Origin: Bolinopsis microptera
Taxonomy: Eukaryota > Ctenophora > Tentaculata > Lobata > Bolinopsidae
Direction of reading: 5' to 3'
Assembly: GCF_026151205.1 (NCBI RefSeq)
Contig: NC_087072.1
Span: 13,492,169-13,556,168 of the forward strand
DNA length: 64,000 nucleotides
The position numbers were made by a program, and so were the translations under genes. Shown in pieces: positions 13,389 to 59,600 of this stretch (position 1 is its first letter; the number at the start of each line of letters is the position of its first letter). The notes under the pieces were generated by a model. That model made no database searches, was not told the DNA's origin, and saw nothing but the letters and a program-made list of their open reading frames with translations.

Positions 13389-16346
13389 TGCTTGTTGTAA
13401 CCAGCAGTTGTAACATGTCATAACTTGTTGTAAGTTGTAACCTACAGTTGTAACATGTCATGACTTGTTGTAACCTACAGTTGTAACATGTCATAACTTG
13501 TTGTAACCTACAGTTGTAACATGTCATAACTTGTTGTAACCTACAGTTGTAACATGTCATAACTTGTTGTAACCTACAGTTGTAACATGTCATAACTTGT
13601 TGTAACCTACAGTTGTAACATGTCATTACTTGTTGTAACCTACAGTTGTAACATGTCATAACTTGTTGTAACCTACAGTTGTAACATGTCATAACTTGTT
13701 GTAACCTACAGTTGTAACATGTCATAACTTGTTGTAACCTACAGTTGTAACATGTCATAACTTGTTGTAACCTACAGTTGTAACATGTCATAACTTGTTG
13801 TAACCTACAGTTGTAACATGTCATAACTTGTTGTAACCTACAGTTGTAACATACCATAACTTGTTGTAACCTACAGTTGTAACATGCCATAACTTGTTGT
13901 AACCTACAGTTGTAACATGTCATAACTTGTTGTAACCTACAGTTGTAACATGTCATAACTTGTTGTAACCAGCAGTTGTAACATGTCATAACTTGTTGTA
14001 ACCTACAGTTGTAACATGTCATAACTTGTTGTAACCTACAGTTGTAACATGTCATAACTTGTTGTAACCTACAGTTGTTACATGTCATAACTTGTTGTAA
14101 CCTACAGTTGTAACATGTCATAACTTGTTGTAACATACAGTTGTAACATGTCATAACTTGTTGTAACCTACAGTTGTAACATGTCATAACTTGTTGTAAC
14201 CTACAGTTGTAACATGTCATAACTTGTTGTAACCTACAGTTGTAACATGTCATAACTTGTTGTAACCTACAGTTGTAACATGTCATAACTTGTTGTAACC
14301 TACAGTTGTAACATGACCATAACTTGTTGTAACCTACAGTTGTAACATGCCATAACTTGTTGTAACCTACAGTTGTAACATGTCATAACTTGTTGTAACC
14401 TACAGTTGTAACATGTCATAACTTGTTGTAACCTACAGTTGTAACATGTCATAACTTGTTGTAACCTACAGTTGTAACATGTCATAACTTGTTGTAACCT
14501 ACAGTTGTAACATACCATAACTTGTTGTAACCTACAGTTGTAACATGCCATAACTTGTTGTAACCTACAGTTGTAACATGTCATAACTTGTTGTAACCTA
14601 CAGTTGTAACATGTCATAACTTGTTGTAACCTACAGTTGTAACATGTCATAACTTGTTGTAACCTACAGTTGTAACATGTCATAACTTGTTGTAACCTAC
14701 AGTTGTAACATGTCATAACTTGTTGTAACATACAGTTGTAACATGTCATAACTTGTTGTAACCTTCAGTTGTAACATGTCATAACTTGTTGTAACATACA
14801 GTTGTTACATGTTATAACTTGTTGTAACATACAGTTGTTACATGTTATAACTTGTTGTAACATACAGTTGTAACATGTCATAACTTGTTGTAACCTTCAG
14901 TTGTAACATGTCATAACTTGTTGTAACCTACAGTTGTAACATGTCATAACTTGTTGTAACCTACAGTTGTAACATGTCATAACTTGTTGTAACATACAGT
15001 TGTAACATGTCATAACTTGTTGTAACATACAGTTGTAACATGTCATAACTTGTTGTAACCTTCAGTTGTAACATGTCATAACCTGCTGTAACATACAGTT
15101 GTAACATGTCATAACTTGTTGTAACCTACAGTTGTAACATGTCATAACCTGCTGTAACCTACAGTTGTAACATGTCATAACTTGTTGCAACCTACAGTTG
15201 TAACATGTCATAACTTGTTGTAACCTACAGTTGTAACATGTCATAACTTGTTGTAACCTACAGTTGTAACATGTCATAACTTGTTGTAACCTACAGTTGT
15301 AACATGTCATAACTTGTTGTAACCTACAGTTGTAACATGTCATAACTTGTTGTAACCTACAGTTGTAACATGTCATAACTTGTTGTAACCTACAGTTGTA
15401 ACATGTCATAACCTGCTGTAACCTACAGTTGTAACATGTCATAACTTGTTGTAACCTACAGTTGTAACATGTCATAACCTGCTGTAACCTACAGTTGTAA
15501 CATGTCATAACTTGTTGTAACCGTCAGTTGTAACATGTCATAACTTGTTGTAACCTACAGTTGTAACATGTCATAACTTGTTGTAACCTACAGTTGTAAC
15601 ATGTCATAACTTGTTGTAATCTACAGTTGTAAGATGTCATAACCTGCTGTAACCTACAGTTGTAACATGTCATAACTTGTTGTAACCTACAGTTGTAACA
15701 TGTCATAACTTGTTGTAACCTACAGTTGTAACATGTCATAACTTGTTGTAACCTACAGTTGTAACATGTCATAACTTGTTGTAACCTACAGTTGTAACAT
15801 GTCATAACTTGTTGTAACCTACAGTTGTAACATGTCATAACTTGTTGTAACCTACAGTTGTAATATGTCATAACCTGCTGTAACCTACAGTTGTAACATG
15901 TCATAACTTGTTGTAACCTACAGTTGTAACATGTCATAACTTGTTGTAACCTACAGTTGTAACATGTCATAACTTGTTGTAACCTACAGTTGTAACATGT
16001 CATAACTTGTTGCAACCTACAGTTGTAACATGTCATAACTTGTTGTAACCTACAGTTGTAACATGTCATAACTTGTTGTAACCTACAGTTGTAACATGTC
16101 ATAACTTGTTGTAACCTACAGTTGTAACATGTCATAACTTGTTGTAACCTACAGTTGTAACATGTCATAACTTGTTGTAACCTACAGTTGTAACATGTCA
16201 TAACTTGTTGTAACCTACAGTTGTAACATGTCATAACTTGTTGTAACCTACAGTTGTAACATGTCATAACTTGTTGTAACCTACAGTTGTAACATGTCAT
16301 AACCTGCTGTAACCTACAGTTGTAACATGTCATAACTTGTTGCAAC
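13389..16346. repeat. 33-bp minisatellite, about 90 copies
   Basis: The unit is CAGTTGTAACATGTCATAAC + TTGTTGTAACCTA, repeated almost without interruption for about 2.96 kb. Variants include CCTGCTGTAAC units, mostly in the distal half, and CATACCATAAC followed by CATGCCATAAC. That variant pair recurs 660 bp (20 units) apart near 13850 and 14510, showing higher-order duplication. Because 33 is a multiple of three, the minus strand stays open as an 11-residue peptide repeat (MTCYNCRLQQV), but one-base indels break it and no gene structure surrounds it. Confidence 0.95.
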
Positions 16347-19300: not shown

Positions 19301-21850
19301 AAGTCACCTGATGATTCACCATTAATCAATTTTAGAAGCTGTCTTGATATAGATATTTCGTCATTTGCTGTCAATATATACTATAGGGAATTAATAATGT
19401 CATATCGTTCATTAGTTCGGATCAGCTAATTTTGATTACTCTCCTGTAAGTTTTGAATACACAGTTTGACTTGCTTCGATAAATATAATACTCGGGCACC
19501 TGTCATTTCTGTCGAGTTTAGCGTAGTGAACCAAGCTTCGTTATTTTGTAAATTACTTGCTTTTCACATTAAGGAGATCAAGATATTCACCATCAACCTG
19601 TTTGCAGGACTGCAGTCTAATATTAGTCTGGACACTTCTTTTCGTAGACAGAACGTTCCCTGGACTGAATTTATTTAATTACCTATAAAATATTTAACCT
19701 TCACAATATAGCTCGTAACATCTACCACTACATATATATGCTTATATGTGCCATGAATGGTTTTATCGCCCGATTATTACACAGCTCTACGTGAATTTGA
19801 GAGATTTGTCTGATAATTACAGTCTGAAAGATAAAACATTCCCAGAACAGGATGCTGCTGGAATGACAGGATGATTGAGTACACGGCGTTACCATGACAC
19901 CCCTTCTAACCACTATCTGGGATGCTTTCAGGCAGCTGCTGTGTTGCGCCCAACCTAAGGTTAGTACTGCAAATAATTCTCCTTATAAGGTCATGTTTAA
20001 TGCTTATATATAACTGTACCGGTTACCCAGGTTACCCAATATAACGACTCTTGTCTCCACCTAATGTCCCTTGTTAAGCGGTCGCTTCACCAGTTCACCA
20101 GTTAACTGTAGGCTTCAATATTAACTCATGATGCAGTTACCTTGACCATAATGATAAAACAAAAACAGTTTATAATCTGCCATTCGCTTGCATTAGTGAT
20201 GATACCGGCAACTGCGATAAACGGTTAAAAAATCAATTATGGTCATAATTGATCTAAATTTGATCGATAGACATTTCAACAAAGCGATCTTATTGTATTA
20301 AATTTTTGTCCGCCCTTAAATATAACTACAAGTGCGAAATCAGGGCCAATACTAAAATACTGCTTAAACTTGTCGAGTTGAATTTTAGTTAAACTTTTCA
20401 CCAAATCCATAAGGCATAATCCAAATTAGCCTCCTGGAAGTAAGAAAAAGCTCGTATTGGTCTATTATATAGTGGCTTTGTTAGCAACCAATACTTATTT
20501 CTAGTAGAATGCAGCGACAAAAGACAGCAAAATAGTACATATAACATACTCTACTCATACTTTCTTAATAAATGTGTTACATGCCTACCCCCTCCCCCTT
20601 CTTTTTAAATCATAACTCTGTTTTGGTTTTGGTTTTGGTTTCCTCCTTTGGTACTCATCAATCCACATTATCCAGAGTTTTCCCTCTTATTTAGTGACTA
20701 GTCATATTCGTACTCGCGTACTGTCATCAGAAAGCCGCTTGTAGTGTCGTGGCAGTTCACAATAAAGTTTGCAATTCTCTGCATCTCAAGTCCTGACAGT
20801 TGTAATATCCGCCTGCTGTGGAATTACTACTTGGCTTCTTATCATGACAGGTCTGACAAGGGCGGCTTCTGCCAGTAAATTAGTGTGCCAGCTTGTTGTG
20901 TCTTCTCTTGCTTGTACTGTGTACATTGTGCAATATTGCGGTATCATTAATCAACTGTAGCCGAATAACTTTGAGGGTTGCAGGTACATCGTGCCTTCTA
21001 TAATCAAATAATTTCTTTGTTACAATGAACTATATATGACTTGTGTAACTTAAGTAACCGGCGTACATCATTGCACAATCCAATGTACACCATCGCACAA
21101 TATTATCACGGTACTACATTAGATAATAATATCTGGGATGTGTACCACTGTGTATAATCTTATACCACTGTGTATAATAATACTCACGAGTCACGAAGCT
21201 CTGTAATCACACTGTGGTAGGAGAGTAGTGAGTGATCACCCCGACCGTAGCTACTAATCAGTCGTATTTTAGTACTCATATTATACCCTGCAGTGTATTG
21301 GTCGTGAGTCAGAGTTGCGTGTTGGGTGGTCCACGAGATTTAACGCTCGTTATAAAGTGGTTTTAACCACTGTAGGCTTACTTTCTCAGCTTACACGGCC
21401 TACTTATACTTAATTTAGCCATTAAAAAACCATATTTATTATTTGTTAAGTTATAATTATTTAATTTACAGCTCACTAGGCTCCTTTTTTCCTCGTTATT
21501 CCTTCTATAACTTACTGCTTAAACATTTCTTTTTGCATCTTGCGCTCGTTAGTACTTTAGCAACCTATTGAGAAAGTCTTTGATCTGCCAGAAAGTTTCA
21601 ATACATTTTGTGCATTTATGTTTGTACAACTGCAAGTGCATGTATATTTTATGACTCATTTGGTGCCGAAAAAGATATGAGATTAATTAAATAGCCATTT
21701 ACAGTTGTTGCCATACATTTAGATTATCTTCATACAGCACTGCCACTTTTAAGTTTCAATACAACAAGTCATTTTTATCAACAACATTTCTAGATCAATT
21801 TGCTAGGTGTAAGGCGTAATGTTTTCAGCTATAAAAGTATAAAGCGATCG
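16347..21850. other. Gene-free AT-rich DNA with one small tandem repeat
   Basis: No supported gene was found. A short tandem repeat lies at 17610-17712 (reported separately). Several 60-70-codon open frames (18737, 19466, 20769) have no motifs, codon signal or splice sites that would support them. Confidence 0.5.
17610..17712. repeat. ~20-bp tandem repeat
   Basis: Units of GTTACTATAGTTACCACTAG occur about five times with small variation, preceded by degenerate copies from about 17590. Confidence 0.8.
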
Positions 21851-22514
21851 TTATAAAGTTATAAAGTTATAAAGTTATAAAGTTATAAAGTTATAAAGTT
21901 ATAAAGTTATAAAGTTATAAAGTTATAAAGTTATAAAGTTATAAAGTTATAAAGTTATAAAGTTATAAAGTTATAAAGTTATAAAGTTATAAAGTTATAA
22001 AGTTATAAAGTTATAAAGTTATAAAGTTATAAAGTTATAAAGTTATAAAGTTATAAAGTTATAAAGTTATAAAGTTATAAAGTTATAAAGTTATAAAGTT
22101 ATAAAGTTATAAAGTTATAAAGTTATAAAGTTATAAAGTTATAAAGTTATAAAGTTATAAAGTTATAAAGTTATAAAGTTATAAAGTTATAAAGTTATAA
22201 AGTTATAAAGTTATAAAGTTATAAAGTTATAAAGTTATAAAGTTATAAAGTTATAAAGTTATAAAGTTATAAAGTTATAAAGTTATAAAGTTATAAAGTT
22301 ATAAAGTTATAAAGTTATAAAGTTATAAAGTTATAAAGTTATAAAGTTATAAAGTTATAAAGTTATAAAGTTATAAAGTTATAAAGTTATAAAGTTATAA
22401 AGTTATAAAGTTATAAAGTTATAAAGTTATAAAGTTATAAAGTTATAAAGTTATAAAGTTATAAAGTTATAAAGTTATAAAGTTATAAAGTTATAAAGTT
22501 ATAAAGTTATAAAG
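21851..22514. repeat. Perfect (TTATAAAG)83 satellite
   Basis: An 8-bp unit, TTATAAAG, repeats 83 times over exactly 664 bp with no substitution or indel that I can see. It is followed by a degenerate TTAAAAAG. Perfect homogeneity implies very recent expansion or assembly-level collapse of a longer array. Confidence 0.97.
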
Positions 22515-24159
22515 TTAAAAAGACCGCGACTAATTGCACGATTCATTTGTTGATGAATAACCTTTCGTGGTTGCACTTGTGGTTTTTGTGTGTTATTTTT
22601 ACGCTTGCACGATCATCACGAAGTCGCAATTGATTAGTCCCACAGAATATGATGTTTTTGATTACAAGTCATATATATAGGAAAAACGCGGATGTGTGCG
22701 TTAAAACTATATAATTATTATAATTATATCGGTAAAATGTTTGGATTGGTTTTCATTTCCGTCAGCAATTATATATTTTAACTTATCAACTTAAATAATT
22801 GTCGTTATTATAACACAATAAAGACGCCTAAACTGGATATTTGATGCGGATTTAAAACCAATCAAGCTTCCTAGTTTCGACCATAATTTCGACCACTTAT
22901 TTTCTTACACATTTGACAGAAGCTGTGACTCTATAATATTGTCAAGACATGACGTAAGCTGAGCTTCGCATCATCCCATTCCCGTCTGTGTTATTTTACA
23001 TGAGATATATCTTACAAACAGTTTACATTTTTACTGCCGCTTCGGTTTGACCTTAGTGATATCCAGTAATACGTTGTGTATCTTCCCAACTGATATTTTT
23101 AAACCAACCATTCATTATTCCAATCTGTCACCTGTCAACTGATTATTTGATTCCACGAAGACCGAACTTCTGCAAAATGAAAAACTGGTCATTGCTGAAC
23201 TGAATTCTTAAATATTCGCCTTTAACTGAAGATCATGTATTTATCCCAAGTTCGGCTGATCCGAGATTTGCAGAGGAGCAGAAAACTCTACCAATCAGTC
23301 AGCAGACAATTGCTAACTTCCTAACCATTTACCTGTTTTTTTGTTCCGCGGAAGTGAGATCAAAATGGATTAAAAAATGTCTGGGCTCCCGGGAAATCAA
23401 CTTATGAAATTGGTTATTTGATAGATAATTACAATTATACGATTTCGTCCATAATTTTGTCTCATGGACTAGTTGGGACTTCGTATTATTTAAAAAATCC
23501 GGTATTTGTTCATCAGGCCCTAGTATTAAAATTGATGCTCAAGCGCGTCTCTACTGAAACAATTCCACGAGTAGTGCCGAGCCTCAACCTAGTCTCACCG
23601 TATCTAACCGTTCATGCATCGGTTATATATCGGTGTAAAGGTAATGGTATAGTGTATACTAAACGGTCTACCTTCAAGTATTTGTTTTCGTGTCATCATA
23701 TAATAATGTTCGTGTCAACAGATTGACCTGCTGTTCATGACTGTTGATCATGGCGTCGATACAGTATATAGTTACAGTATCAAGTAAATCTGTCACGTGG
23801 TATTATATATAACGTAACATTAGCCGCTATATACTAATCCTTTGGACAGCAATATTCCGGTACCTGTTTCAGTTAATGGTATCAAATACTAGAGACTTCA
23901 AGGCTTTTACCGGTTAGAGATTACCGTTTTAGTGTGTGTGAATAACGAAGGTGTGAATATAAAAGTGTTTTTCCGTGCACGGTATAATTTATTGCTGTCT
24001 TCTTCTCTATCACATAGGTTATGCCATATAGAATTAATTTCTTGGCTGGAGCTGGCGTTTTATTCGATGTTTAGCCGATGTCTACGATAACATAATGCAT
24101 TTGCCGCTATAGTATTGGTAGTCGAGTTTGGTGTTTGGTTGTATTAGAGAGAAGCTGGT
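22515..24159. other. Intergenic region upstream of the AKAP-like gene
   Basis: No coding exon was recognised. The promoter and 5' UTR of the plus-strand gene starting at 24160 should lie in its last part, but no TATA box or initiator stands out. The open frame at 23418-23726 has no supporting motif. Confidence 0.45.
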
Positions 24160-27100
24160 ATGGGGCAACAAAACTCCAAGTCGTCGAATAAGAAAGGTGT
24201 ACCATCTGTAAAGGAGGAGCCGGGGAACAAAGATATTGAATGTTCAAAGTTGAATGCTCCGTCTGAAAAAAGTTCAGTAGAGGATCATCCGAACGAGGAA
24301 TTTTCAGCAGAAGCTGTCCTGACTCATTCACAGCTGAAAGAAATAAAGCCTGTAGTAGTTCTCGAATTAGACCGTTCAAAGTTGGAAGAAGCTTGCCAGA
24401 CGATTAAGCCCGTAGCCCCTCCCCGTGGATGTGCTGCTGCGAAGCGGGTTGATCCCGTGATGAAAGAAGAAGTTACTGATCCTAAAGATGCAGGTATATC
24501 TGAAGTAGTGCCAGCAAATGACTTGAACCATCTAAAAGAAATTAGTCCTAACGATGGTACACCTGAAATAGTGCCAGCAAATGACTTGAACCATATAGAA
24601 GAAGTTAGTCCTAAAAAAGTAACGTTTGAAATAGAACATGACTTTGACCACCAAGAAGAAGTTTGTCCTAAAGATGTAACACCTAAAATAGTGCCAGTAC
24701 CTGACTTGGACCATTCAAAGGTTAAAAAAGTTTCTCCTAAAAAGGTTACGTTTGAAGTAGTGCATGACACTGACTTTCATCCGAGACTAGAAGAAGTTGC
24801 CGAAGTTAAATATGCCACAGTTGAATTCGGAGAGACGGGGAGTTTCAATCCGGGAGTTTCAAAGTCTACTCAACACTCCCCAAGTTGCTCGGAGAGTATT
24901 TTCACCACGGTTAGTTGAAGTTGTTTTATCTCCTTATATGGGCATCACATATAAGGGTTAAGAATAGTCTCGCCACGAATAGTTCCGCGGAGCGTTTATG
25001 AGTAATTCACAGTAAGATTTTGTCAATTTTAGATTTTCATCAAATATTAACTTTACTGCTGCTTTTTGGTTTTTTGATGAAATATTACCGGACAAGGGCT
25101 ATTATACAGGTCACAAACTCACCACCAGAGATAAACAAACGTCTCGACAAGTATAACATCTCCCTAGTGATAATAGATCTCAGACCGCATTGCTGACCAA
25201 GGAGGCAGGAGGCTCCGTGGTTAGATTAGATACAGTTAACCAACATTGGTCCTACTATTGACTACATGGTCGCCTTTCATGATCCATGTAGTGCACGTGT
25301 AGACGTGATTGATGGGACCACTTGTGGGCAACTCCGACTCGAACAATCGTTGTACAGAAATGTAGAACTAGATCTCTCTGCTCATGTTAATTGCTAAACA
25401 CAAACACACTTCTTAAATCAAGTTTAGTTTATAACGTTACTCCTCCGCACCCGCAACTCATCTTTTGTATCTGTTTAGTGTTTATGTTTGCATAGCCCTC
25501 TTACCAGTAAGTTCATAATTAATTTCTAGTGTTAGTTTAGGATAACATCTCGAGGTACTAGGTGTCTCACATTTCACCTAACCTACCAGTATCTAGTATC
25601 ATGGTGGTGGCGGGGGGCATTATCTAGTGCACCTCCTACTTCTCTAAAACTTGTTAAATGTTAAATGTTCTTGAACTGAAATTGACAACTTGTTCATGTA
25701 CAATTAAAGAATTAACAATCTTGTGTTGAATAGGCTTGGTCCCGAGTGGGGGATGTGTTACTGTGTCCCAGTTACTCCTGACCACATTTGTTTAAGGAGT
25801 AAAACTATAATATCATTATGTATAATGTATATGGTTATGATTTTTATTCCATATAATTTACTAACTCCTCCTCCTGAATTCAGTCCTTCATCAATTAAAC
25901 CCCCTCTAGGACAAGTTAGCAGAAACCCACGACCTCGGAGAAGATAACCAGAAAGGTCTAATCTTCAAGAACCCCACCACAGACTCGCCCACTTACACAC
26001 CCCAGACAAACGGGAGTATCCCCCACCTGGAACACAACAAGTCACGTGACCTCCACACGCCCCCTACTGCTGTGGTTAATCTGGAAACGGTTCAGATAGA
26101 ACTCTGTGAAACTGAGAGTGAGACGAAACAGTGCTCGGATACTGACGACATGCTTACTACGGTTAGTGTTCACCTTAATTGGGTTACTACCTGTTAATAC
26201 CTTAGCGGCCCTTTTTATAAGAGGCTCTACTGCAGTCTACATGTACGTATTCGGTCGACTCCAACTGTAAATTTGTAACCTTTTAAACTTCTATGACAGT
26301 GGAGTTTTACTGTCCTCTATGTTTTTGTTCTTTCTTCTTTTTGATGAAAACTTGTCCAAAAACTCAAAAATTCCATAATATGTAATAATTATCGTTACAA
26401 TTTAATAAATAGTCTTGGGGATCAGATAGTGTGTTTTGAGAAACTAGTGAGGTATGGGATGAATTATATGATTATTCAATTTTGTGGATATCTCGTGGTC
26501 AAGCTGTGATGAGCTTGGGATCCTCTTTTTAAACATCTGCTCAATTCACAAAAACGATATCTTCATTGATTGTGCTAAGTACGACGTGATAAACTTGAAC
26601 GAAACTAGCTCTACCCTCTAAAGTAACGGTATATAAGAGCAAAGGATTTCATCCCTTTGTCCTCCAGGCTCTTAGCAAGAAAGGAGCCAGGAAGACAGGA
26701 CATCTATCTGTATTCCAGGCTCCTAGTGTGACAGGACATCTATCTGTATTCCAGGCTCCTAGTGTGACAGGACATCTATCTGTATTCCAGGCTCCTAGTG
26801 CGAGGAAAACTTCCTGTAGAGGGGGAGGTTTAATCACGTACCTAGATAAACGGGTATGTTATTCTGATGACATTGAAAAGCACAAACTCAAATCAAGAGC
26901 CAAGTACATTTGGTTAATTCCTTATAACTAAGATTTGATCTTGAAGGAAATTCAGTGGTAACAAAATTTCGACGAGATTCTAGACGATATTCTCTCTAAA
27001 TTGAAATTATGGAAGGTAACAGTTTTTTGAGTGATTTCAATAATGACTTGATTAAACACAGATTTGGTGAAAACTTACAAAATGTGACTAACAATTTGGT

Positions 27101-27838
27101 GTCCCCTAAGGAACATTTGTTTCCTGTAAATATACGTGATTTGTCTGATATAAATAATAAGTTAACCTTTTGAGACAATTCCTGTCACTGAGGGCTTTTG
27201 ATCCATCAATCGATCGACTCAGATTCAGCACAAATTTAAATCGCACTTTATGAGAGGAAAGGAAATTAAAGACCTTGACGCCTTCATTCTCAGCCATGCA
27301 CGAGTCGATCTTTTTAATTTACCAAACCGTTATAAACCTTTATGAAGCGCCTGTCAAAAGTCGCCTGAACTCTATAGCCCGTGACGTGTCCAAAACCAGG
27401 ACATCATTATAATCTAGAACACTGCAGCCTCATATGTCCAAAACTGTATCAGTATTCAGTAATCACGTGGCGAGATCGTAAGTCACGTGACCATGCTCTC
27501 AGTCTCTTGACAGGGCGCCACTCATTATTTTAGATAAAGTAATCGAGGTTTTGTCAGACATAGATATCAATATTTAATGACACTGAAAGTTACCGGTTTT
27601 GAAGCTGTCTGGGTTAGCACATGCTATCATCACATTCACATGATAATATAAATTTTGACATCTAACGTTTACCTGACCTATTCTTCAGGCTGCAAGAAAC
27701 ATAGTAGAAGATGCGATACAGCAAGCTATAGCATCGGAAGTTGTATCATTGGTAATTTGCCGGACGCTAGGATTTTTACTGGTCGAGAGAGCAACGACCA
27801 ACGCTCAACGCCTTTATATGTATCCTGAGTCAGTTTAG
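24160..27838 (+). CDS. Candidate N-myristoylated A-kinase anchoring protein (three exons, ~383 aa)
   Basis: Exons 24160-24909, 25910-26161 and 27689-27838 join in phase 0 (250 + 84 + 49 codons, then TAG at 27836-27838). Donors are ACG|GTTAGT twice; acceptors are CCCTCTAG and TTCTTCAG. The start ATG gives MGQQNSKSSNKK, a good N-myristoylation signal (Gly2, Ser6, Lys7), so membrane attachment is likely. Residues ~120-210 hold four diverged ~21-residue repeats (NDLNH..EEVSPKK type), two with KKVTF (residues 152-156 and 194-198), which fit the RVxF docking motif for protein phosphatase 1. Exon 3 begins with ARNIVEDAIQQAIASEVVSL, an amphipathic helix with the hydrophobic spacing of PKA RII-binding helices and close to the synthetic AKAP-IS core (QIVDNAIQQA). 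Known AKAPs combine such features to tether PKA and phosphatases. The function is inferred. Exon 3 may instead splice at 27751|GTAATT and continue. Confidence 0.7.
26694..26801. repeat. 36-bp tandem repeat, three copies
   Basis: ACAGGACATCTATCTGTATT + CCAGGCTCCTAGTGTG is repeated three times inside intron 2 of the AKAP-like gene. The short open frames seen on both strands here are by-products of the repeat. Confidence 0.9.
27009..27345 (+). pseudogene. Possible decayed coding fragment of unknown origin
   Basis: A 56-codon frame starts at ATG 27009 (MEGNSFLSDFNNDLIKHRFG..., stop TGA at 27177-27179). It is followed at once by another open stretch (QIQHKFKSHFMRGKEIKDLD..., ending NLPNRYKPL and TGA near 27345). 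Both read like protein rather than random AT-rich DNA. They lie within intron 2 of the AKAP-like gene. I do not recognise the family. It may be a dead mobile-element ORF. Confidence 0.35.
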
Positions 27839-28481
27839 CTTTCTTCAAACACAAGGAAACTTTGTGTAGATGCAAAATATGGATGATAGGAGAGATCTTA
27901 TATTTGACGAGCAGCGCTACTAATTAGCGTTACTAATTAGCGATCATTTGAAGCGAACATTATGAAAAATGTCAGACAACTGGTGAAAGTACTGATTAAT
28001 CTAAATATTCTTGTCGTTGATATTATATAACAAGCATATGGCCGATTCAAAGTCGGACTGCTGAACAAATTTAATATAGAGTAAAAATTAATTTATTCTC
28101 GATGTGATAAGATCAGAAATTGTTCATGATAACTAACAAGCATTCCATTTAGGTTTTATTGACTTTTGAATAATTCATATATTTCACAAATCGTCCGAAT
28201 TATTCACTTTTAAGCGTGTTTTATTAAAGTCACATTTTCGACCTATTCAAATAATTGTATTTTATTTAGCCAATAATAGCCACTACGTAAGAATACAAAT
28301 TTGAATACAGCTCCTAATATGAAATTCTTTCGCTTTAATAGGATAAGAATTGATTAAATTCAAATACTAAAACATCTAATCTGAACTACTCATTAATAAA
28401 AGTTGAGATATTAACCCGTATCATTGTATATGTTAATGATCACTAATAAAATGTTATGCTTAGGTTTCGTCTGCAGGAGTC

Positions 28482-28682
28482 TTATTGTATAATATGTACT
28501 ATAATATCATCCAACCGCTCTTCGTTATCATCATCTTGTTGAAGTAATTCCTCAATAAACCTACCTTTCAGTTAATTCTTTAATCGCCATGGTCGTTCTG
28601 AAGTGTCTTGTGCCCAGTTTCCGGGTGGAGTTGCAACAGATCTTCTGAAGTTGATGGGATTGGTTTACCAGTGCTGTCTGAG
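28482..28682 (-). CDS. RIF1: Probable last exon of the RIF1-like gene, with a 4-bp frame problem
   Basis: After a strong acceptor (CTTTCTTCAACTCAG) the minus strand reads TALVNQSHQLQKICCNSTRK and onward through FRTTMAIKELTE. A second open stretch, FIEELLQQDDDNEERLDD + IIVHIIQ, ends in TAA at 28484-28482. The two parts are out of frame around GAAAGGTAGGTTT. Either there is a GTAGGT donor and the tail is separate, or a small insertion breaks a single terminal exon. AT-rich sequence with minus-strand AATAAA-like motifs lies near 28258. The gene would then converge with the AKAP-like gene. Confidence 0.4.
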
Positions 28683-31600
28683 TTGAAGAAAGCCAGGAAG
28701 AAAGGTATCGAGAATAACTCAGGCCGAAAATTTTGTAAGTCAACGTTTTCCTGGAGACTACTTTTCTCCAGTGTTCATGTTACTCTGATCATTATGAGCC
28801 GAAAATAGCCTTATAAATAGCGAATTCTTGATCTTTTGGTCGTTCTCGAAATATATCCCTGAGTACAGCCAAATCGTACAGCCTCTGGGAGATGCCGGTC
28901 TTGTGGTCAACTGAACGGCTAAGTTGGGCCATTTTTTCCACGTGTCATTTTAGTGGCACGCCTTCCTGACCCTGTAGCTCTGGCTAGTACAGATCCTTCC
29001 TGCTTCATAATCGGTAATCCGGTATAGATATTAGTCTTAGCTATACCTTGTATTATGAAATTTTTGGCTGCGAAACTTCGCCATGTCGTCACGTTGGCTT
29101 TTCCAAATTTCAATTTTGTCTAAAAATGAATTTGGTAAATAAAATTAACAACAACTTTCGGCCCACAGTTAAAACTACTTTAAGGCATAAACATGTGGAA
29201 AATTTCTTTTGAAAACTTAAAAAGCAATTTACTTTCTATAAACTGACTGAATTCTGTTTCGTCAAGATGCATCCTTCCCCTAACCTTTATATATTAGGCG
29301 ATATTTACCGTAGACTTAATTAAGCATCAAAAATCAATAGTTCCCACAGTCAGACAACGAATGAGTTAAAAAGTTCCAACAAAAGGTCGTTACGAAGGGA
29401 AGGTTAGGTTGGTAAGTAAACTTTGTTTTTTATGTCAGGTCGTTCCGAAGGGAAGGTAGTGTTGAAGTTAACCATGTTTTTTTATTCAGGTCGTTACGAA
29501 GGGAAGGTTGTGTTGAAGTAAAACATTGTTGTTTATTTCAGGTCGTTTACGAAGGGAAAGTAGTTTGATAGTAACTTGTTAAGGTGTTGGTTTTATTTCA
29601 GGTTCGTACGAAGGGAAAGTAGTATTGAATAAACCATTGTTATTTATTTCAGGTCGTTACGAAGGGAAGGTATGTGTTGAAGGTTAAAACATTGTTCAGG
29701 TGTATTATTTCAGTCGTTTACGAAGGGAAGTAGGTTGAAGTATACATTGTTATTTCTTTCAGGGTCGTACGAAGAGGAAAGGTTAGGTGTGAAGTAAACA
29801 TTGTTAAGGTGTATGTGTTATTTTATTTTCAGTCGTTACGAAGGGAAGGTAGTGTTGGAAGTAACATTGTTTAGTGTATTTATTTCTGGTCGTTACGAAG
29901 GAAGGTAGCTGTTGAAGTATACATTGTTAAGGTGTTATTTATTTCAGGTCGTTACGAAGGGAGGTAGTGTTGAATTCCCTATAAAGAATATCAGCAACCT
30001 TGTTAAAACAACCTGGATGCAGAAAATAGAGGCCTCTCTGGGGAGATTACCATGCTGGATGTTTTACTTTGAAGGAACCCTAAGTCATCTCTTATCATCC
30101 CTCTGACGGTAAGTTTAACTAGTGGTTATGTTGGTACTAGTGGTCGTTACTAGTGGTTACTGTGGTTACTCGTGGTTACTAGTGGTTACATCTATATCAA
30201 TCCCTCCTGCCGGTTAGTTAATAGTGTTACTAGTGGTTACTAGTGGTTACTATTGGTTTACTAGAGGTTACTAGTGGTTACTGTGGTTATAGTGGTTAAA
30301 TCTCATTTTCAATCCCACTGTCGTTAGTTACTAATGGTTACTAGTGGTTTATAGTGGTTACTAGTGGTTACTAGTGGTTACTAGTGGTTTACTCGTGGTT
30401 ACTAGTGGTTACTAGTGGTTACATATCTTATCATCCCCCTGACGGTTAGTTACTCGTGGTTATTATAGTGGTTACTAGTGGTTACCATTTGGTTTATTTT
30501 GGTTAATAGTGAACTTTTTGTTACAGCGGTAAACTATGACGTCACTTGCGTTGTGATGACGTAATGTTCAGGTAAACTGATCTCATTTGCAGCCCGATGA
30601 ATGAACCCACTTCACTTACTTTGGAGAACGAACCTTTAAGAACACGGGAGATTGCAGTTTCTGGGCACATTGACTGTTATCGGCTATAATACACGTCGAC
30701 TCTTTTTGTAACATCTACGAGTGTGGTGAGTGGTTACTAGTGGTTACTGGTGGTTACTAGTGGTTAACTAGTGTATCTCGTGGGTACAAGTGGTTATAGT
30801 GGTTACGGGTGGTTAACTAGGGGTTATGGTTACTAGTGGTTACCTTATACTTTCTATAATAAACACTCGGACTACTGCTATCTATTTCGTTTAACACTTT
30901 TAGTAGTTAGTAAATCTTTCAAAGTACGTTATATCTCTTTAAAAAGGGCATTCGGCACATTATGAATCAAAACGCCATAAAAAAAGAAAACTAAACATCA
31001 CCATTTTATAACTTCTTCCACTCCCTCCCTATCTAAAGCTAAAAATCTAGTCTTCCAGAAATCAGTCAAATTCTTAGTCTATTATTCAAGATGTATCAAA
31101 CATTATTGTGAGATAAAAAAAATAACACCGGAATCAACTAAAGTTTCTAAAAAACTATGATAAACCGTTTTTACCTTAATAAACCCAAAATTCAAAATAT
31201 AAATAAATAATTGTAGCAATGGCCGTGCTGCCCCAGTCAAAGTGATGAAAGTATCTGGACTAGAGGAGAAGGAGCAGGAGAAGTGTGGGGCGGTGGGGAA
31301 ATGAAGTAGGTACTTTCTGATGAGAGCATTAATGAGGATCTTATCAAGGTTAAAACTAATGTGTTACTAGTGGTTACTAGTGGTTACTAATGGTTCCTAC
31401 TTCCTAGTGGTTACTAGTGGTAACTCGTGGTTATAATGGTTACTAGTGGTTATAATGGTGTACTAGTGGTTATTACGTTTTTAGATGGTTACTAAAGTCT
31501 ATATAAGGATATTAATAGTTCAAACTGAAACTCCTTTGAATGTTTTTGCACAACAAGTTAGGACATAATAAAAACGACCTTGTCGAACACATCAGTTCAA

Positions 31601-50689: not shown

Positions 50690-53600
50690 CGTGTTACCCT
50701 TGTAGGATGAATAGCACAATTGTATGATAATATATTGTCTGAGATTACATCTTTAAATGTTGCGGTAGATCATTGATGTTTTTATAGCAGGTGTTGGTGA
50801 TTTGACTGAAATTTTGACTGCATCTGGGACTAATAAATTTAACTTTAATAAGAAATTATTTTTTAGATTTTATTTCTCCACGATCATCAAGGCCAGAATA
50901 GTTACTGCGTTGTAAATTATCTCAGCCTAAGTACCTTAAATATATTTCCATGACTACCAATTAGTTTGACAATCATCTGTTATAAGTAGAGGAGGGAGGC
51001 ATTGTTCTCAATTTTCAACTGGTTTGAATTAATTCAACCTCTCACATTATGGCATAATACAGTACAGTATTCCCCCTGAATCCCCCTATAACGCGCCTCT
51101 GTATTATTGTACAACTAGAACACGGTTTATTTGGACAAAAGTTTCCACCCTGTTTTATTTGGAGCGACAATTTTTAATTTCTTAACGTTGGCAGTTGGAA
51201 TGAAATGAATCCCGTTCACTTCGTTCATATGACAAAGCCCATAAAGCTATAATATAGTTGGCACGAAATAAAACAACAAACCTTGCTGGTCATATGAACG
51301 AGACAGACCCACACCCTCATAACATAGACACTGTGTCCAGTGTTAGCTAACTGCTGAAGTTCTTGTAGCAACGGACTTGTCTGTTAGGATGTTTTCATTA
51401 CATATTTTAATAAAACGGTTGAAATAACTTAGGTAACATGCGGACCACCTTACGGACTTAATATGCTATATTGAAAATATTAACAGTTAAAAAGAAAGTT
51501 GCTTAATGAAACAGACTCTTGCCTTGTAAAGTTGTAACAACAAATTTATCGAATAAAGTTAAGCTAATATAATGCGTTATATTAGCTTAACTTTATTGGA
51601 TCAATCTGTATATAATGGAAAATAAGTTAAAAATGGAATGAGAGGCTTGATTGCGCACATGTAATAGGCAGATTGTATAGATGATGTAAAATATCAGATA
51701 AGATAAGATAAGAGATACGATAAGAGAGTTGAACTAGAGTTACAAACCGGTTTGGCGGTGTTGGGTAGAGTGGAAAGATTGAACAGCTTCTGAGCGATGA
51801 TTCTGTTAACTTCATTATCAGTCTCACAAGTTAACAGAACTGCCATGTGTTTCTCTAACAACCCCCCTGCCTTGTCTCGGATCTGTTGGGGATATTGCAG
51901 ATAGTGGAGGGTAGAAGGGCCAGTTAATTGTGATTTTAGCATGTTTTGTAAGCCTCTTTTTTGGGAACTTTTAAACACTGAACCTACTAGAGAGCTACAA
52001 CCTGACCTCAACCCACCAATGTTAGCATCAAAACATCTTAATTTCGCAAATCACCAAAGAAGTTGGTTGCTATGGGCGATAATGCAAAACAACTCGACGA
52101 AATTGTACATAGTTTAGCGTCAATCCATTGAATAACCAACGGTGTATTTACTGCTCCAGCGATAATGTTGACATTGTGGTGTGTTATTTCAAATTCAATA
52201 ATAACTACAACATGGTAATCCAGAGGATTATAGCAGCAAACTAACCACTTGAAGTTTGCTGACAGTCAGGTTCACCACACAAACCAGCCACCGAGCGAGG
52301 AAACCTAACTGACAGGCTGTTTTAGGGGCGGTCAGTAACATCTTGTCCAGTAATCTCAGTATCTCCTTGTGTACTGCTACATCGTCCTTTAGAGCCTGAA
52401 ATGTGCAGTTTTAGAGGGACGGTTATTATATTCATTGTATTGAGATTACAATGAAATGGTTTCAAGTAACTTTAAGGTATCTTCTTAGTCGAAGTCGAGT
52501 GACATCTAAACTTTGTCTATTCCAAGAGGCTTGAGTCTTCTCCAAGAAGATCAATGAGTACAATATATTCGAATTGAAATTGCCATGACCCAATGCTCTT
52601 GCAACTGCTAGACTACCTCTTGTTGTATAGTTGTATAATAAGCATCTTCGGACTGTAGCAGTGGTATATTAGTCTTTCAGAGTACCCAGACACAGACCCC
52701 ATTAGAGGATTTATTCTATACAATCTAATAAATCCTTATCTAGGCCTTGAAAACGTCACGTACATCTTGTAATAACTAGACTAGAAGTGCACCCAACCAA
52801 TCCTTACATTTACCATGTCCAATTAAATACTAGATGGTCCGTTCAAATTGGGCAGTTTTGTTGATTTACTACCTAAAAGAAAGACACCTGCAACGCTAAA
52901 CAGGTTGTATGTGTCAGCAATATATGCAATAGTTTCGTGGAATGACAGCCGACTAGTTACTTCATCAGCAAGGGAAGACGTCAGCTCATTTCAAGAGTTA
53001 TTCAAATATAACGGTTTTGTAATGTGTTGTTCTTGAAGAGTTTGGGCATCATGATTCGGTTTTTGGTATTGTTGCAGTTTGTTGGCTATCAAGTGGAGAG
53101 CTTAACCTTTTCTGCAGGTAAGAAAGCTCAGGATAAAATAATGGAGATATTTTATTACTATCTAATCAAAAGTTAGCATGGAACATCTAGGTACTTTGAA
53201 TGTGTTTGGAGCTTAAATTGTATGCTCGCCTATCTCCGAATTAGTTTAAAGATCAAGACATCATGTAGATATGACACTTTCTGTTTTAGTGAGAAGAGTA
53301 GTTGCAGCCGAACAGAGCACCACATTTGTAGAGAACGGTTACACCCACAAAGCTGAATACTGCTGCAATAAAAGGATATCTCATCCTTACTGGTCAGAAA
53401 CACTCAGTAAGTACCGTTAGTGGGGGGGGGGGGGGCAACTAAATCGATATGTGTGTTTGTAATTGAGGGCTAGAAATTAAATGGGCTTTACTTAGCCACG
53501 CAATTTGTCCACGGGACTGCCACCCCGAAATAAAGATTTAGAAAAATATTAGACCGAGCCACCCCTTAATCAAAGCTATTTGTGTTAAATATAACTTTTT

Positions 53601-56600
53601 AAATCACTTTCAGGAGCTACAGAAACAGTGCCTCAATTCCTGGTAATGGACTACGGTAGAACTTATAAGTTCACACAAATAAATATAATCCTGCTAAGTC
53701 TGGACTCATATCAATATATGGAGACGTACATGGTGAGCTATATGGACGGAGTTGAGATATCACTCCTGGATAAAGATGGTAACACGGTTCACTACTGTGA
53801 TAATCTACAAACAGATAGTAGTAGGTTTGGGAAAATGGAAAATCAGATCTATGCGATTGATTGTCACTCCGCAGAGGGGAGGAAAGTGATGTTCGAGACG
53901 AATAAAGATTCACCGTTAAAGAGAGCAATACTTGTCGTCGATACTTGGGCACAAGTAGAGATAATATTTCCAGGTACTGTAGAATAGGAAGGGGGTGACG
54001 TTGGGGGGCGGGGGGATCATACACTTAGTACCGTACGTGACGTTGGGGGGGGGGGGGGGGATTTGCAACTCAACAAAAAATACCTAGAATACTAAATGTA
54101 ATATGTTCAGTGATGCTTTAACTTAACAAAAACCTTGCATACCGCAATGTGAATACTGAATAGTAATTTAAGGTAACAGATTATTTTACTAGATTCTAAT
54201 CTAGTAAAATATCAGATCATGGAGTAAGCCCGTGGGGAGCAGAGCTTACTTCTACAGCTGAGACAGACGAAGGAATCAAATACATCTCTAAATACTGTTT
54301 CGATGGAAAACTAAATTCGCCTTATTGGGCGCAAACAAATGGTTAGTATGGTAGTTGATAATTAATAATGATTCAACTTTTTTATTGATATGAAAAATAA
54401 GTCGTTACGACCGTGATTGTGGTGCTTTGAAAGCATTTTGTCTTGATTGAAGATTTGAGAAGTTTAAATTTGTATTTTCAGCGGTGGGAACAGAGTATGG
54501 AAAGCATTTTCAGTACCTGATTGTTGACTACGGAGACAAATTCATCTTCAACTATATCGTTTTCATCCTGGCTAACACCGACACTATGTACAAAAGCACA
54601 GCCTTCAACGAAGAAACCATCAAGGAATCAATAAGATCGATGGCATACACCACCATTTACATACTCGACGATCAATACGACCAAGTCCATCAGTGTGATA
54701 TACCAGAGGTTCAAACACAGAGTTTAGCAATAGAAGACCAAACGTACACAGTAAGTTGCGGAGGAGAGGTCGGGAGATTGATAAAGTTTGTGACAGTTAC
54801 AAATGGACAAAGTATACTGATTGTGGAGACTTGGGCTCAGATTGCAACGCCTCCTACGCCTCTGCCAATAGGTTACTTTATTAAATTAATTAAAAAAGCA
54901 AATTAATATAACGTTTTAAGTAATTTTTAATGTAAAGTAATTTTACATTGATAACGAAGAAAAACATTTTCCATCATTCATGTTGACCATATTATAGCAA
55001 ATGCAGTGCCAAATATTGTTCACTGCATCCACAATCAAGGTATAAAACCTTCGTCATTATACAGTTTCGTCATTATATAACCTAAAGGTGTGGCAATAGT
55101 CAAGAAGTGAGATCAGGAATTAATGAGTGTGATACTCCGCATGCAATCCAATATCTGATATCAGATACAACATCACTGTTCTTACCTCAGATATCAGAAC
55201 ATATTTGTCATCTTCAGATCTCTGTGATTAGAACTTGCCTTTATTGATATCTCATTGATTATGGACCCACACTCTTTATTTTTAAAGATTTATTATCTTG
55301 AACTTTGAACTTAATTTGGACATTAAAGCATTAAGAGTTGATGGAAAAATGAAGGAAGTTGAAAACTGAAATTAATAAAATTAAAAAACATCCAGGGTCT
55401 GGGGAAGAGAGATAAGGTATTAATCCTACAGAAAGTTTTTCAATATCTTCTTATAAAGACATAATTTGGACATTAAGAATCTGATTCTATATAAAAAAGT
55501 TACTATAATTTAAACCTTTATAGCATTAAAATAGTACTAGACTTAAAATGATACTGGTACCAGAATTTACTCTGCTGCAGGGATGTGACGAGAACCAGTG
55601 CAGATTCTACGGTAATTGATCTGGTCCCCAACTAATAGAATTCTTACCAGGTACTCCTCGATTATCACGTGTTTTGTATTAGCGAATGATCTGACAACTA
55701 GTCAGAAGTTATTCTCCGAACCAGCGAATGGACCGGTGAACGCAGTGGTTGCCCCAAGAAACAGTCTGTTCTTATAATTATATGATATATAATAGTTACA
55801 AACCTTGTCGTTACAGGGTAGGTCTCTAGTATGGTAATTTCTAAACTTTTAGCAATCAGAATTATAACAAGACAATTAGACTGAGACCCACTGCGCAGGA
55901 TGATTTTTGCACCTGACAATTCTATTATAAGCCACCTGTTTTAATCTGGAGAATAACATCTTTGTTTTACAACTTTACTGAGCCGCTTAGGGTGGAACGA
56001 GTTTCAATTGCTCCCTCAGCTGATTTGAAAACATTTTAAATTCGTTTACTAGGTTTGGACTTTTTGAGATGAAACTGTTTTGCTTTCATAGCGTCTTGTT
56101 GATTGTTTACTGTGCGGAGTCACTTGGTTCAGGTATTTTCTATCTTTTGAGAAAATTAAAAGTTACCACCACTTCTATTCACGTTCTTTAACAAGACTTT
56201 TTACTTTGATATTTTTGCCTTAAATTAATTTTAGAGTTGTCAATTTATAAACATTAAATATTAGCTGTTGTTTAAACTTCACATATCACTTTCTGAACTA
56301 AATTCTCGCCGCAGTCACTTACGAGATCACTCAACTGACAAAAGATACACAAGTTAATGGTGACGGAGGTCGAAACGACTACTTCTTCACGATTCAAGGA
56401 ACTTTAGGGCGCACACGAGAGTTTCCTTGTACAGCCAACCGTGGTCGTGGTGCTAACAGCACTTGCTCTAATATAATAGAGGACGATGCTGACATTGGTG
56501 TTTATACTGGCTTGAAGATAAGAAACGGCGGGAGTAACTCTTGGGCGTGCAAGAAGATCTACATGAAAATAAACGGGGTAGTCCAGAGGACAGCTAAATG

Positions 56601-59600
56601 TGCTACAGTCGATGATTACCAATATCTGATGGTTGAAGTCTCTGGTCGGGATAAGGTATGCTAAAACTTTGTTCACTTCAAACGGATCTGGAAGATTGTA
56701 AACAAATTCGGCTTCATTTTAATTACTGACTGGTAGGTCCAAAAGTAGATCCACTATCAAAACTTCCCCTTATCAGAATTGCACGAGACTTCCGTTAAGA
56801 TGGGGAAGTATGTCCGGCTCAACTTCTCTACCAGTAAAGTACGGTGAAGTAGTTGGGAACTTAACCTGCTTGGATCCAACTCATACTAACAAGGGAGCAC
56901 AGTCAGTAACCTGTGTTGGAGATAACATGGTCATAATGCCAGCAGATATTGATAAACCTAGCTGCCCTAAAGGTTTGCAGAGAGTTTAGATTGTGTTATT
57001 TTCGGAGTATGTTTTGATTTTTACCTCTTTGATTTCAGAAAATTTAACTTCAATGTTTAAAATCTCAGGAATATTATTTATTATCCAGGCATAAAACGTT
57101 CAGTATCTGCCACCCAAAGCAGTACATACCAGAGAGAAGAGAATAAAGATATAGTTCACAAAGCAGAATTTTGTTGTGATGGCAACTTCAAATTCCCTTC
57201 GTGGTCAGAGACAACTCGTAAGTAGCCAAGGCAGAGCCTGTAACTGTCCCAAGCCAGCAGTAATTCGAGAATTCGGACTATAAATTATTTTAAAAAGCGC
57301 CAATATTATAATCATTTATTTTCAGATATTAGAAGTAACAGTCGCAGCCCAGAATTCCTGAATATGGACTACGGTGCGACCTTACACTTCAAAAGCATCG
57401 CATTTGTGTTGATGAACAAGGAATCCTTCCAATGGGCCGCAGATTATATGATTAGTTTCATGGATGGAACAAAGATAACCCTGCTGGATTATGAAAATAA
57501 CGAGATATTTGTAGCGAGTGAAAGGTTAACTGTTAAGACAAAGATAGACACAATAGCAGATCAGACTTACAGGATAGGGTTAGGAGGACAGATAGGAAGA
57601 AAAGTCAAATTTCAAACAGACGAGACCAACCCTGCTGGAAGATGCATATTGGTGGTAGAATCTTGGGCAGAGGTCGAAGAGGAAACAGATTATGGTTGGT
57701 AAATTGTTTATAAATTTTATAACTTCGAGGCATAATTATACAGGCATAATTATACAGGGTCACAAAAGGAATACACAGGATATTAGGTCATGCTTCACAA
57801 GCTGGAACAACAACAAGGTAAAATGTAAAGGTATTATATCTGAGAAGTGAGAACAAAATAAGAAATTGTATTTAAAATGAAAAACTTAACGAAGATATCG
57901 AGTAAAATCAAATTATTTAAAAAAAAAAAAGTTTTTACTGACGAGGAAATTATTTGGTATACCTTGTGTTTGACTAAATCGCAAATTAGGGCCATCACAT
58001 CCTCGGCCAAATCCTTCAAAGCTTCCGCCTCCTTGACATTAGCCACCGCCCACACACACTTAATAGCTATCTGCTTATTGTACGAGGATAATCTTGTAGA
58101 TTTAACCATCAACTCCACCGTGGTCTTAACGTTCATATGCCTGAGTGATTGTTTGTTGTAATATAATGGTACTGTAAAGAACATAATGTACATTGTATAA
58201 ACAGCTCTCAGGCGTCTCATCTTCATATTATTTTTAAAGAAATATCAAAAGATGCAGATATTTTATTTAACAAAATAGAGCTATAGAGATATTTTAAGTT
58301 AGTGTTAAATAGGCTGCTGACCTGGCAAGTTGTGGTCTAGCGACACAGTAACCGACAGCAAGGACAACAGCACATCTTAACTCCATGTCAGGAGACATGA
58401 CGTCACTTTTAAAGTGCTTGTCAAAGTCCACGCTCTTAAGTACTGTTTCCAGATAGTCACGCAACGGACTCTCGTTGTTTGCAATGCTGAAGAAAAAGTT
58501 AAAGTTTTAAAACTTAAATTAATAATGTTATACTGTGTGCTCATAATGCATTTAGTGAACACTGTTCTTTTACCTTTTAATATTATAATCTACATTAGCG
58601 ATTATATAATGCTAGGGATTTTAAAATATGCCATTTTCAGGGAATTTCATCTTTAACCTAAAGTTACAGAGATTTGGTAATCGTACTGTAGTGCGACACG
58701 TACTCTAGTGCGACACGTACTCTAGTGCGAAGTCCGACAAAAACACCCTCTGTCGCACTAGGGTACGTGTCGCACTCTACTGCGACAAAATATCCTGACT
58801 TATTTCCAAGTTCAGGTCACATCTGACATCCTATCCTTCTTATGGACCATTAAGTGATTCGTCGGGTCGGTTCACGTCACTTATTTCGAAGTGATCTTGC
58901 GAATACGATTCGTCGGTTCACATTACGTGTTTCGAAGTGATCCACTGATCACAATTCCTTTCCTTCGGGTCAGTTCAAGCCACGTATGCAGTTTGTGATC
59001 CACCGAGTAACTCGTAAGCAGCATATGATCCTCATTCCTATCACACGCATCGTATGAAGGTATATCTCCGATTTGGATAACAAGTTCATATGCTTGGGCC
59101 ATATATAAGGTCACGATGATTCTACCAAAGCATCGAACAACATCAACATGTCTTCTTCAATCACCTTCATTCCTGGACGCACTACTGGTTCAAGAAACGT
59201 TATCCACGACGGATACCGCTACTGCCTGGATAAGAAGCGCGACGACAGGACCTACTGGCGATGCACTGAGAAGATCTGCTCCGGACGTCTCAGTCTGATG
59301 AACGACACTACTGTGACCAGTACGAAGACCCATTCCCACCCTCCTACTCCTGCGCAGCTCTTCACCAAGAGAGGATGCTTCTTCCACCACAAGCAAGCAC
59401 TTTGGAGGAAGATGCAGCAACATGACCTAGTCCCGGAATACAACGCAGAGAACTCAGCAGTACGGAAGTACTTTCAGATGATCGGTGCCATTGCCTTCGT
59501 GGACCTTGGAGACGTACTGGATACCTGGACGCAGCTGAAAGCAACCCTTCCCCCGGAGATGGATTCCTTTGCTGACTAAATTTTTATTGAATAGGTAAAG

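What the first reader, a model, noticed from the sequence alone, without database searches (positions are those of the whole stretch)
24160..27838. Candidate new AKAP: myristoylated protein with an AKAP-IS-like RII-anchoring helix
Three exons join in phase to place a consensus N-myristoylation signal at one end and an amphipathic helix, NIVEDAIQQAIASEVVSL, at the other. The helix is close to the high-affinity RII-binding AKAP-IS core and has the right hydrophobic spacing. No overall similarity to a named AKAP is evident, so this may be an undescribed membrane anchor for PKA.
Basis: partly seen in the sequence, partly recalled or inferred. Interest (0 to 1): 0.75.

Follow-up and report, generated by a model that had tools for sequence, protein, structure and literature searches.

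The report
Candidate comb-jelly membrane-anchored scaffold gene
This looks like a comb-jelly gene for a fat-anchored, floppy scaffold protein that ends in a helix of the kind that docks protein kinase A, but the kinase subunit such helices usually prefer could not be found in this genome, so its true partner is still open.

Summary
A + strand gene starts with a good N-myristoylation signal (MGQQNSK) and ends with AARNIVEDAIQQA, which fits the six core anchors of the published RII-anchoring consensus. Only the E2-E4 join that skips E3 gives all seven anchors (LTTAARNIVEDAIQQA). A copy 121 kb away, about 98% identical, keeps all exon frames open; the three exon indels are 6, 36 and 36 bases. The helix outscores every other 13-mer in the window's ORFs by 10 bits; about 0.2 such hits are expected per proteome.

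Assembly statistics fit the ctenophore Bolinopsis microptera. The only PKA regulatory subunit found is type I. No RII gene appeared in four genome searches, while ROPN1L, SPA17 and a repeat-rich protein with an RII-like docking domain are present. So 'membrane anchor for RII' is not supported as stated. Better: a myristoylated, probably disordered scaffold whose helix grips a docking domain, of type I PKA or of the ciliary ROPN1L/SPA17 group. Two KKVTF motifs also suggest PP1 docking. Splicing, binding and orthologues are untested.

The parts
24160..24909 (+). E1, first coding exon, 250 aa: MGQQNSKSSNKKG (N-myristoylation signal with nearby lysines), then a Ser/Glu/Lys/Pro-rich stretch with internal repeats of about 21 codons
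   Evidence: First ATG after an in-frame stop; donor ACG|GTTAGT ranks 11 of 397; repeats; paralogue differs by in-frame indels of 6 and 36
24613..24627 (+). KKVTF, residues 152-156, candidate PP1-docking (RVxF) motif
   Evidence: fits [R/K]-X(0-1)-[V/I]-{P}-[F/W] quoted in PMC12691818; kept in the paralogue with a synonymous change
24739..24753 (+). KKVTF, residues 194-198, second candidate PP1-docking motif
   Evidence: arises from the internal repeat, so not independent of the first
25910..26161 (+). E2, 84 aa, ends ...DDMLTT|; 1 difference in 252 bases from the paralogue
   Evidence: acceptor 18 of 373, donor 11 of 397
26668..26853 (+).
   Evidence: acceptor 1 of 373, donor 2 of 397; tandem repeat; paralogue has one repeat fewer and AG>AA at the main acceptor
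27689..27835 (+). E4, AARNIVEDAIQQAIASEVVSL (to 27751) then VICRTLGFLLVERATTNAQRLYMYPESV; stop TAG 27836-27838; docking-domain-binding helix AxxIVxxAIxxA
   Evidence: acceptor 4 of 373, donor at 27752 weak, 33 of 397; motif; helix 2-44 in AlphaFold2 from one sequence, mean pLDDT 92.6
21721..29271 (+). Block duplicated at G000:C1 about 121 kb downstream (loci L001, L002)

Best explanation
A ctenophore gene codes for a membrane-tethered scaffold. Inferred mechanism: N-myristoylation of Gly2 plus the lysines after it holds the N-terminus on a membrane; a long, probably disordered linker carries two KKVTF motifs that can dock PP1; the C-terminal helix lies in the groove of a docking/dimerisation (D/D) domain dimer. 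The most likely single partner is the type I PKA regulatory subunit, the only PKA-R found here, so kinase and phosphatase would be held at one membrane site. Skipping or keeping E3 would switch the helix between the full consensus (LTTAARNIVEDAIQQA) and a form with Asp at the first anchor. Shown: the exons, motifs, intact second copy, and which D/D proteins were found in the genome. Inferred: transcription, splicing, lipidation, every binding step. Odds: a D/D-docking scaffold of some kind 0.55 (type I PKA 0.28, ciliary D/D proteins 0.18, an RII that was missed 0.09).
For: Core anchors 6 of 6, and 7 of 7 with the E2-E4 join, of LxxxAxxIVxxAIxxA (consensus in PMC3682517; fit). Score 10 bits above any other 13-mer of the window's ORFs; 0.19 expected per proteome-sized set. 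Its score (25.8) exceeds the leave-one-out scores of 8 of 9 recalled AKAP helices (9.3-22.4; AKAP-IS 30.0). E4 is predicted helical. Only myristoyl-type start of the window. Second copy open in all four exons, no stops in 447 codons; the three exon indels are all multiples of 3, against 10 of 21 noncoding ones; pN/pS 0.53. KKVTF twice, kept in both copies. Type I PKA present with D/D and cAMP-binding exons.
Against: No transcript, orthologue or binding data. AKAP-IS-like helices prefer RII (recalled), and no RII was found. With E3 included, which its splice sites favour, the first anchor is Asp. No Pfam match reaches its cut-off; the 24-residue helix query finds nothing in the PDB at E 10. pN/pS 0.53 is weak constraint, E1 alone has pN 0.024 against pS 0.036, and E4 has one synonymous difference in 63 bases, so selection on the helix is not shown. 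The second copy has lost the main E3 acceptor. AlphaFold2 makes helices of many short single sequences.
Confidence: 0.55

Rival explanations
1. Ciliary docking protein, not a kinase anchor. The helix binds RII-type D/D proteins without kinase links (ROPN1L/SPA17 heterodimer or the CABYR-like protein) and tethers them to a membrane, perhaps in cilia. (This is a sub-case of the D/D scaffold above.)
For: ROPN1L orthologue at C7:7632471 (84.1 bits to ropporin-1-like, 29.8 to RII-alpha), SPA17 orthologue at C10:8174605 (44.0 against 24), and a protein with an RII-like D/D and long Ser/Lys and Ala/Glu/Pro repeats, without nearby cAMP domains, at C1:22796891. The SPA17-ROPN1L heterodimer binds the AKAP18 helix at 82 nM, RII-alpha at 31 nM (PMC8339350, passages). 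D/D-interacting proteins that bind no kinase are mostly ciliary (PMC12203939, passages).
Against: Nothing in the protein itself points to cilia; the same motif would fit PKA.
Confidence: 0.18
2. One reading: an RII anchor; an RII gene exists but the searches missed it (gap, withheld stretch, or strong divergence).
For: RII was found in every phylum but Nematoda in PMC12608923 (passages), so its absence would be unusual; the helix type is RII-like.
Against: The same searches found type I PKA and three RII-type D/D domains; a human RII-alpha query hits the RI gene best, 42-46% identity, then PKG-like exons; the RI-derived query finds only RI plus one weak hit. That paper did not cover ctenophores (no occurrence of the word).
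Confidence: 0.09
3. A real myristoylated, fast-evolving disordered protein whose C-terminal helix does something else (self-association, membrane contact); the AKAP likeness is a coincidence picked from many motifs.
For: The finding was picked post hoc; core matches AxxIVxxAIxxA are expected about 6 times in six frames of the whole genome and about once per proteome. The helix continues into hydrophobic VICRTLGFLL if E4 is the last exon.
Against: Graded score is far rarer than the bare pattern (0.06 per genome in six frames at window composition, 0.19 per proteome).
Confidence: 0.36
4. The exons do not form one gene; E4 is an intronic ORF joined by eye.
For: E4 coding stretch is short (49 codons) and its conservation in the second copy does not exceed that of introns.
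Against: E4 acceptor 4 of 373; four exons in one phase; all frames intact in the second copy.
Confidence: 0.09

Closest known systems
AKAP2 / AKAP-KL and the designed peptide AKAP-IS (RII-anchoring helices)
   Same: AIQQA core and spacing; 8 of 12 residues as in AKAP-IS, 9 of 16 as in AKAP2 (both helices recalled)
   Different: No similarity outside the helix in Pfam; AKAP2_C search of the genome was silent, but so were its controls; N-terminal lipid signal and no RII found
Myristoylated AKAPs: vertebrate AKAP12 (gravin), AKAP7-alpha, Drosophila Akap200 (recalled)
   Same: N-myristoyl signal, disordered charged body, amphipathic anchoring helix (general layout, recalled)
   Different: No sequence similarity seen; no gravin-type Pfam domain in the protein
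AKAPs that also bind PP1, such as AKAP1, AKAP9 and AKAP220/AKAP11 (recalled)
   Same: Kinase-docking helix plus an RVxF-type motif on one chain
   Different: Two motifs generated by an internal repeat; binding untested
D/D-interacting proteins (DDIPs) of cilia, PMC12203939
   Same: AKAP-like helix possibly serving non-kinase D/D proteins (ROPN1L, SPA17), which this genome has
   Different: Myristoylation signal; no axonemal domain or evidence

Membership tests
A-kinase anchoring protein (AKAP) | Amphipathic helix fitting LxxxAxxIVxxAIxxA | tested here: met
   6 of 6 core anchors; 7 of 7 with E2-E4 join, 6 of 7 with E3-E4 or E1-E4; hydrophobic moment
A-kinase anchoring protein (AKAP) | Binds a PKA regulatory-subunit D/D domain | not testable with these tools
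   No complex modelling of foreign or joined chains, no binding assay
A-kinase anchoring protein (AKAP) | Separate targeting device | tested here: met
   MGQQNSKSSNKK, sequence level only; sole such start in the window
RII-anchoring protein | An RII subunit to anchor in the same genome | tested here: not met
   one PKA-R gene, type I; caveats: assembly gaps, withheld stretches, no positive control for RII in an animal genome
Type I PKA anchor | RI subunit with D/D domain present | tested here: met
   C6:8366-8382 kb; D/D exon nearest RI-alpha, cAMP exon nearest RI
Type I PKA anchor | RI preference of the helix | not testable with these tools
   AKAP-IS-type helices are RII-preferring (recalled)
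Named AKAP families (AKAP2 and others in Pfam) | Family domain by profile | tested here: inconclusive
   No family over its cut-off in the joined protein; PF15304 silent in genome and in all 14 controls
PP1-interacting protein (RVxF) | [R/K]-X(0-1)-[V/I]-{P}-[F/W] motif | tested here: met
   KKVTF at 152 and 194; the loose pattern is expected 0.87 and a strict recalled form 0.10 times per 445 aa of window ORF
PP1-interacting protein (RVxF) | Binds PP1 | not testable with these tools
   -
Ciliary D/D-interacting protein | ROPN1L/SPA17-type partner present | tested here: met
Ciliary D/D-interacting protein | Ciliary location | not testable with these tools

The most novel reading that the evidence does not exclude
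An RII-consensus anchoring helix evolved in an animal lineage that has lost RII (or whose RII is gone beyond recognition). It serves type I PKA or the RII-like D/D domains of ROPN1L, SPA17 and the CABYR-like protein, on a myristoylated scaffold that also docks PP1, with E3 splicing as a switch on the first anchor position. It would separate the 'RII-type' helix from RII itself and show anchoring re-invented in ctenophores.
Probability: 0.2. Interest if true: 0.75.

Novelty: new member of a known kind. Interest (0 to 1): 0.48.

Why it matters
Anchoring of PKA is best known from vertebrates and flies. [quoted passage not shown] Both are directly testable by peptide binding and by searching ctenophore transcriptomes. 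Of the 7 papers that hold both 'ctenophor-' and 'AKAP' (listing only), none has a title or abstract opening about a ctenophore AKAP; searches listed none either.

Tried and rejected
Pfam on the joined protein and on nine other window pieces: nothing over cut-off for the gene; RHH_6 (E 0.095) and CreA (E 0.23) are below cut-off. AKAP2_C in the genome: silent, controls silent too, so no answer. PDB search with the helix: no hit at E 10. More paralogues: E1 has only the local second copy; the next matches (E 0.07 and worse, 29% or less) are repeat-rich frames and were not followed. Orthologues in other animals could not be searched: the collections hold prokaryotes, viruses, plasmids and this one genome. 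COX1 for phylum: no match; the species comes from assembly statistics instead. RII candidates rejected: C7:18604417 is nearest PKG; C1:22796891 has an RII-like D/D but no cAMP domain in the 20 kb searched (RI exons as positive control); the three long-frame cNMP hits read as two CNG-type channels and one SLC9C-type exchanger by eye. The RII-alpha search lists the PKG-like loci C1:24277846 and C1:21266571 after RI. Docking-domain fragments L005, L006 and L008 were not identified.

Full report
What is there. The window is G000:C1:13492169-13556168 of a 264.65 Mb assembly. On the + strand four exons, all phase 0, can be joined: E1 24160-24909 (250 aa), E2 25910-26161 (84 aa), E3 26668-26853 (62 aa) and E4 27689-27835 (49 aa, stop TAG 27836-27838), 445 aa in all. 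E3 has the best acceptor (1 of 373 AG) and second-best donor (2 of 397 GT) of 23000-29271 by a generic matrix from memory; E4's acceptor ranks 4 of 373; the donor that would end E4 at 27751 ranks 33 of 397, so I read E4 as the last exon.

Is it a gene? A block of about 7.5 kb (window 21721-29271) recurs about 121 kb downstream. Outside gaps the copies are 97-99.6% identical in the four exons, 96-98% in the introns. All four exons stay open in the copy (447 codons, no stop). The three exon indels are 6, 36 and 36 bases; of 21 noncoding ones 10 are multiples of three. pN/pS over the exons is 0.53. E2 has one change in 252 bases. E1 changes almost as fast in amino acids as elsewhere (pN 0.024, pS 0.036), and E4 has one synonymous difference, so selection on the helix itself is not shown. 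In the copy the main E3 acceptor is lost (AG>AA); in the window, in-frame alternative acceptors lie inside the E3 repeat.

N-terminus and body. MGQQNSKSSNKK is the only start of the type MG[not EDRKHPFYW]xx[ST][KR] on either strand of the window, and the ORF has a stop just before it. The body is rich in charged and small residues and repetitive, which suggests disorder; I did not run a disorder predictor. KKVTF occurs at residues 152 and 194 in the window and 166 and 208 in the copy. It fits the PP1-docking consensus quoted in PMC12691818 (passages). The two come from one repeat, so they count as about one event.

The helix. The published anchoring consensus is LxxxAxxIVxxAIxxA (PMC3682517, passages). 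E4 supplies A-RN-IV-ED-AI-QQ-A, 6 of 6 core anchors. The residue four before the first Ala comes from the exon upstream: Leu with E2-E4 (7 of 7), Phe with E1-E4, Asp with E3-E4. It is the only core match in 72,916 ORF residues, whereas a loose AKAP pattern matches 107 times. On a matrix of seven recalled helices without its two closest relatives it scores 23.9 bits, the next of 49,780 13-mers 13.6. The tail probability gives 0.19 expected hits per 8.55 million residues of proteome-like composition. The bare core pattern alone would be expected about once per proteome, so likeness is good but not proof. AlphaFold2 from the single 49-residue sequence gives one helix, residues 2-44, mean pLDDT 92.6; this is weak evidence.

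Which animal? Table 1 of PMC11797021 (passages) gives Bolinopsis microptera 265 Mb, largest chromosome 26.2 Mb, N50 20.8 Mb. G000 has 264.65 Mb, C1 of 26,206,493 and C11 of 20,825,282 bases. The paper lists 346 scaffolds, G000 has 232 contigs. I take the species as very likely, not proven by a marker; COX1 was not found and 18S was not analysed.

The partner problem. RIIa domain search: 6 matches at E 1. cNMP domain search: 14 matches at E 0.001, all 14 looked at. Human RII-alpha from memory: best hits are exons of one gene at C6:8366-8371 kb (42-46%), then PKG-like exons. A query from that gene finds itself and one weak hit. Against the PDB its cAMP-binding exon is nearest RI (114.5 bits, RII 86.6) and the D/D exon on the same strand about 11 kb upstream is nearest RI-alpha. 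So one PKA regulatory gene, type I, was found and no RII. This is absence in one assembly with exon-wise searches and no RII positive control. PMC12608923 (passages) found RII in every phylum it examined but Nematoda; the passages do not mention ctenophores.

Other D/D proteins. C7:7632471 is a ROPN1L orthologue (84.1 bits). C10:8174605 is a SPA17 orthologue (44.0 bits). C1:22796891 has a D/D nearest RII (35.6 bits), followed by Ser/Lys repeats and, in a nearby frame, Ala/Glu/Pro repeats; no cAMP domain was found in 20 kb. I call it CABYR-like by layout, from memory. The SPA17-ROPN1L heterodimer binds the AKAP18 helix at 82 nM (PMC8339350, passages), and PMC12203939 (passages) describes non-kinase, mostly ciliary D/D ligands.

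Reading. I favour a myristoylated scaffold whose last helix binds a D/D dimer (0.55): type I PKA (0.28), ciliary D/D proteins (0.18) or a missed RII (0.09). A chance likeness in a real gene is 0.36 and a wrong gene model 0.09. AKAPs are defined by binding, which is untested; so it works like an AKAP on paper, and is not yet one.

Noticed in passing
G000 C6:8366-8382 kb, C7:7632471, C10:8174605, C1:22796891 (L004, L016, L017, L020, L003, L007): Only a type I PKA regulatory gene was found in this ctenophore assembly, beside ROPN1L, SPA17 and a repeat-rich protein with an RII-like docking domain but no cAMP domain nearby.
   Followed up: partly
29384-29974: Minisatellite whose units look like a tiny exon with its splice sites...tttatttcag|GTCGTTACGAAGGGAAG|gtagtg..., repeated with many small indels.
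   Followed up: no
26694-26800: Exact 36-base tandem repeat inside E3 that carries an in-frame splice acceptor in each unit, so repeat number and alternative acceptors could vary the protein.
   Followed up: partly
13391-16346 and 21850-22522: A 33-base satellite of about 89 copies, and a GTTATAAA array of about 84 copies that lies at the edge of the duplicated block.
   Followed up: no
53595-57702: Three related reading frames (about 130-152 aa) with faint F5/8 type C likeness and one with faint PLAT likeness, all below Pfam cut-offs.
   Followed up: no
59109-59576: FLYWCH zinc-finger reading frame, over the Pfam cut-off.
   Followed up: no
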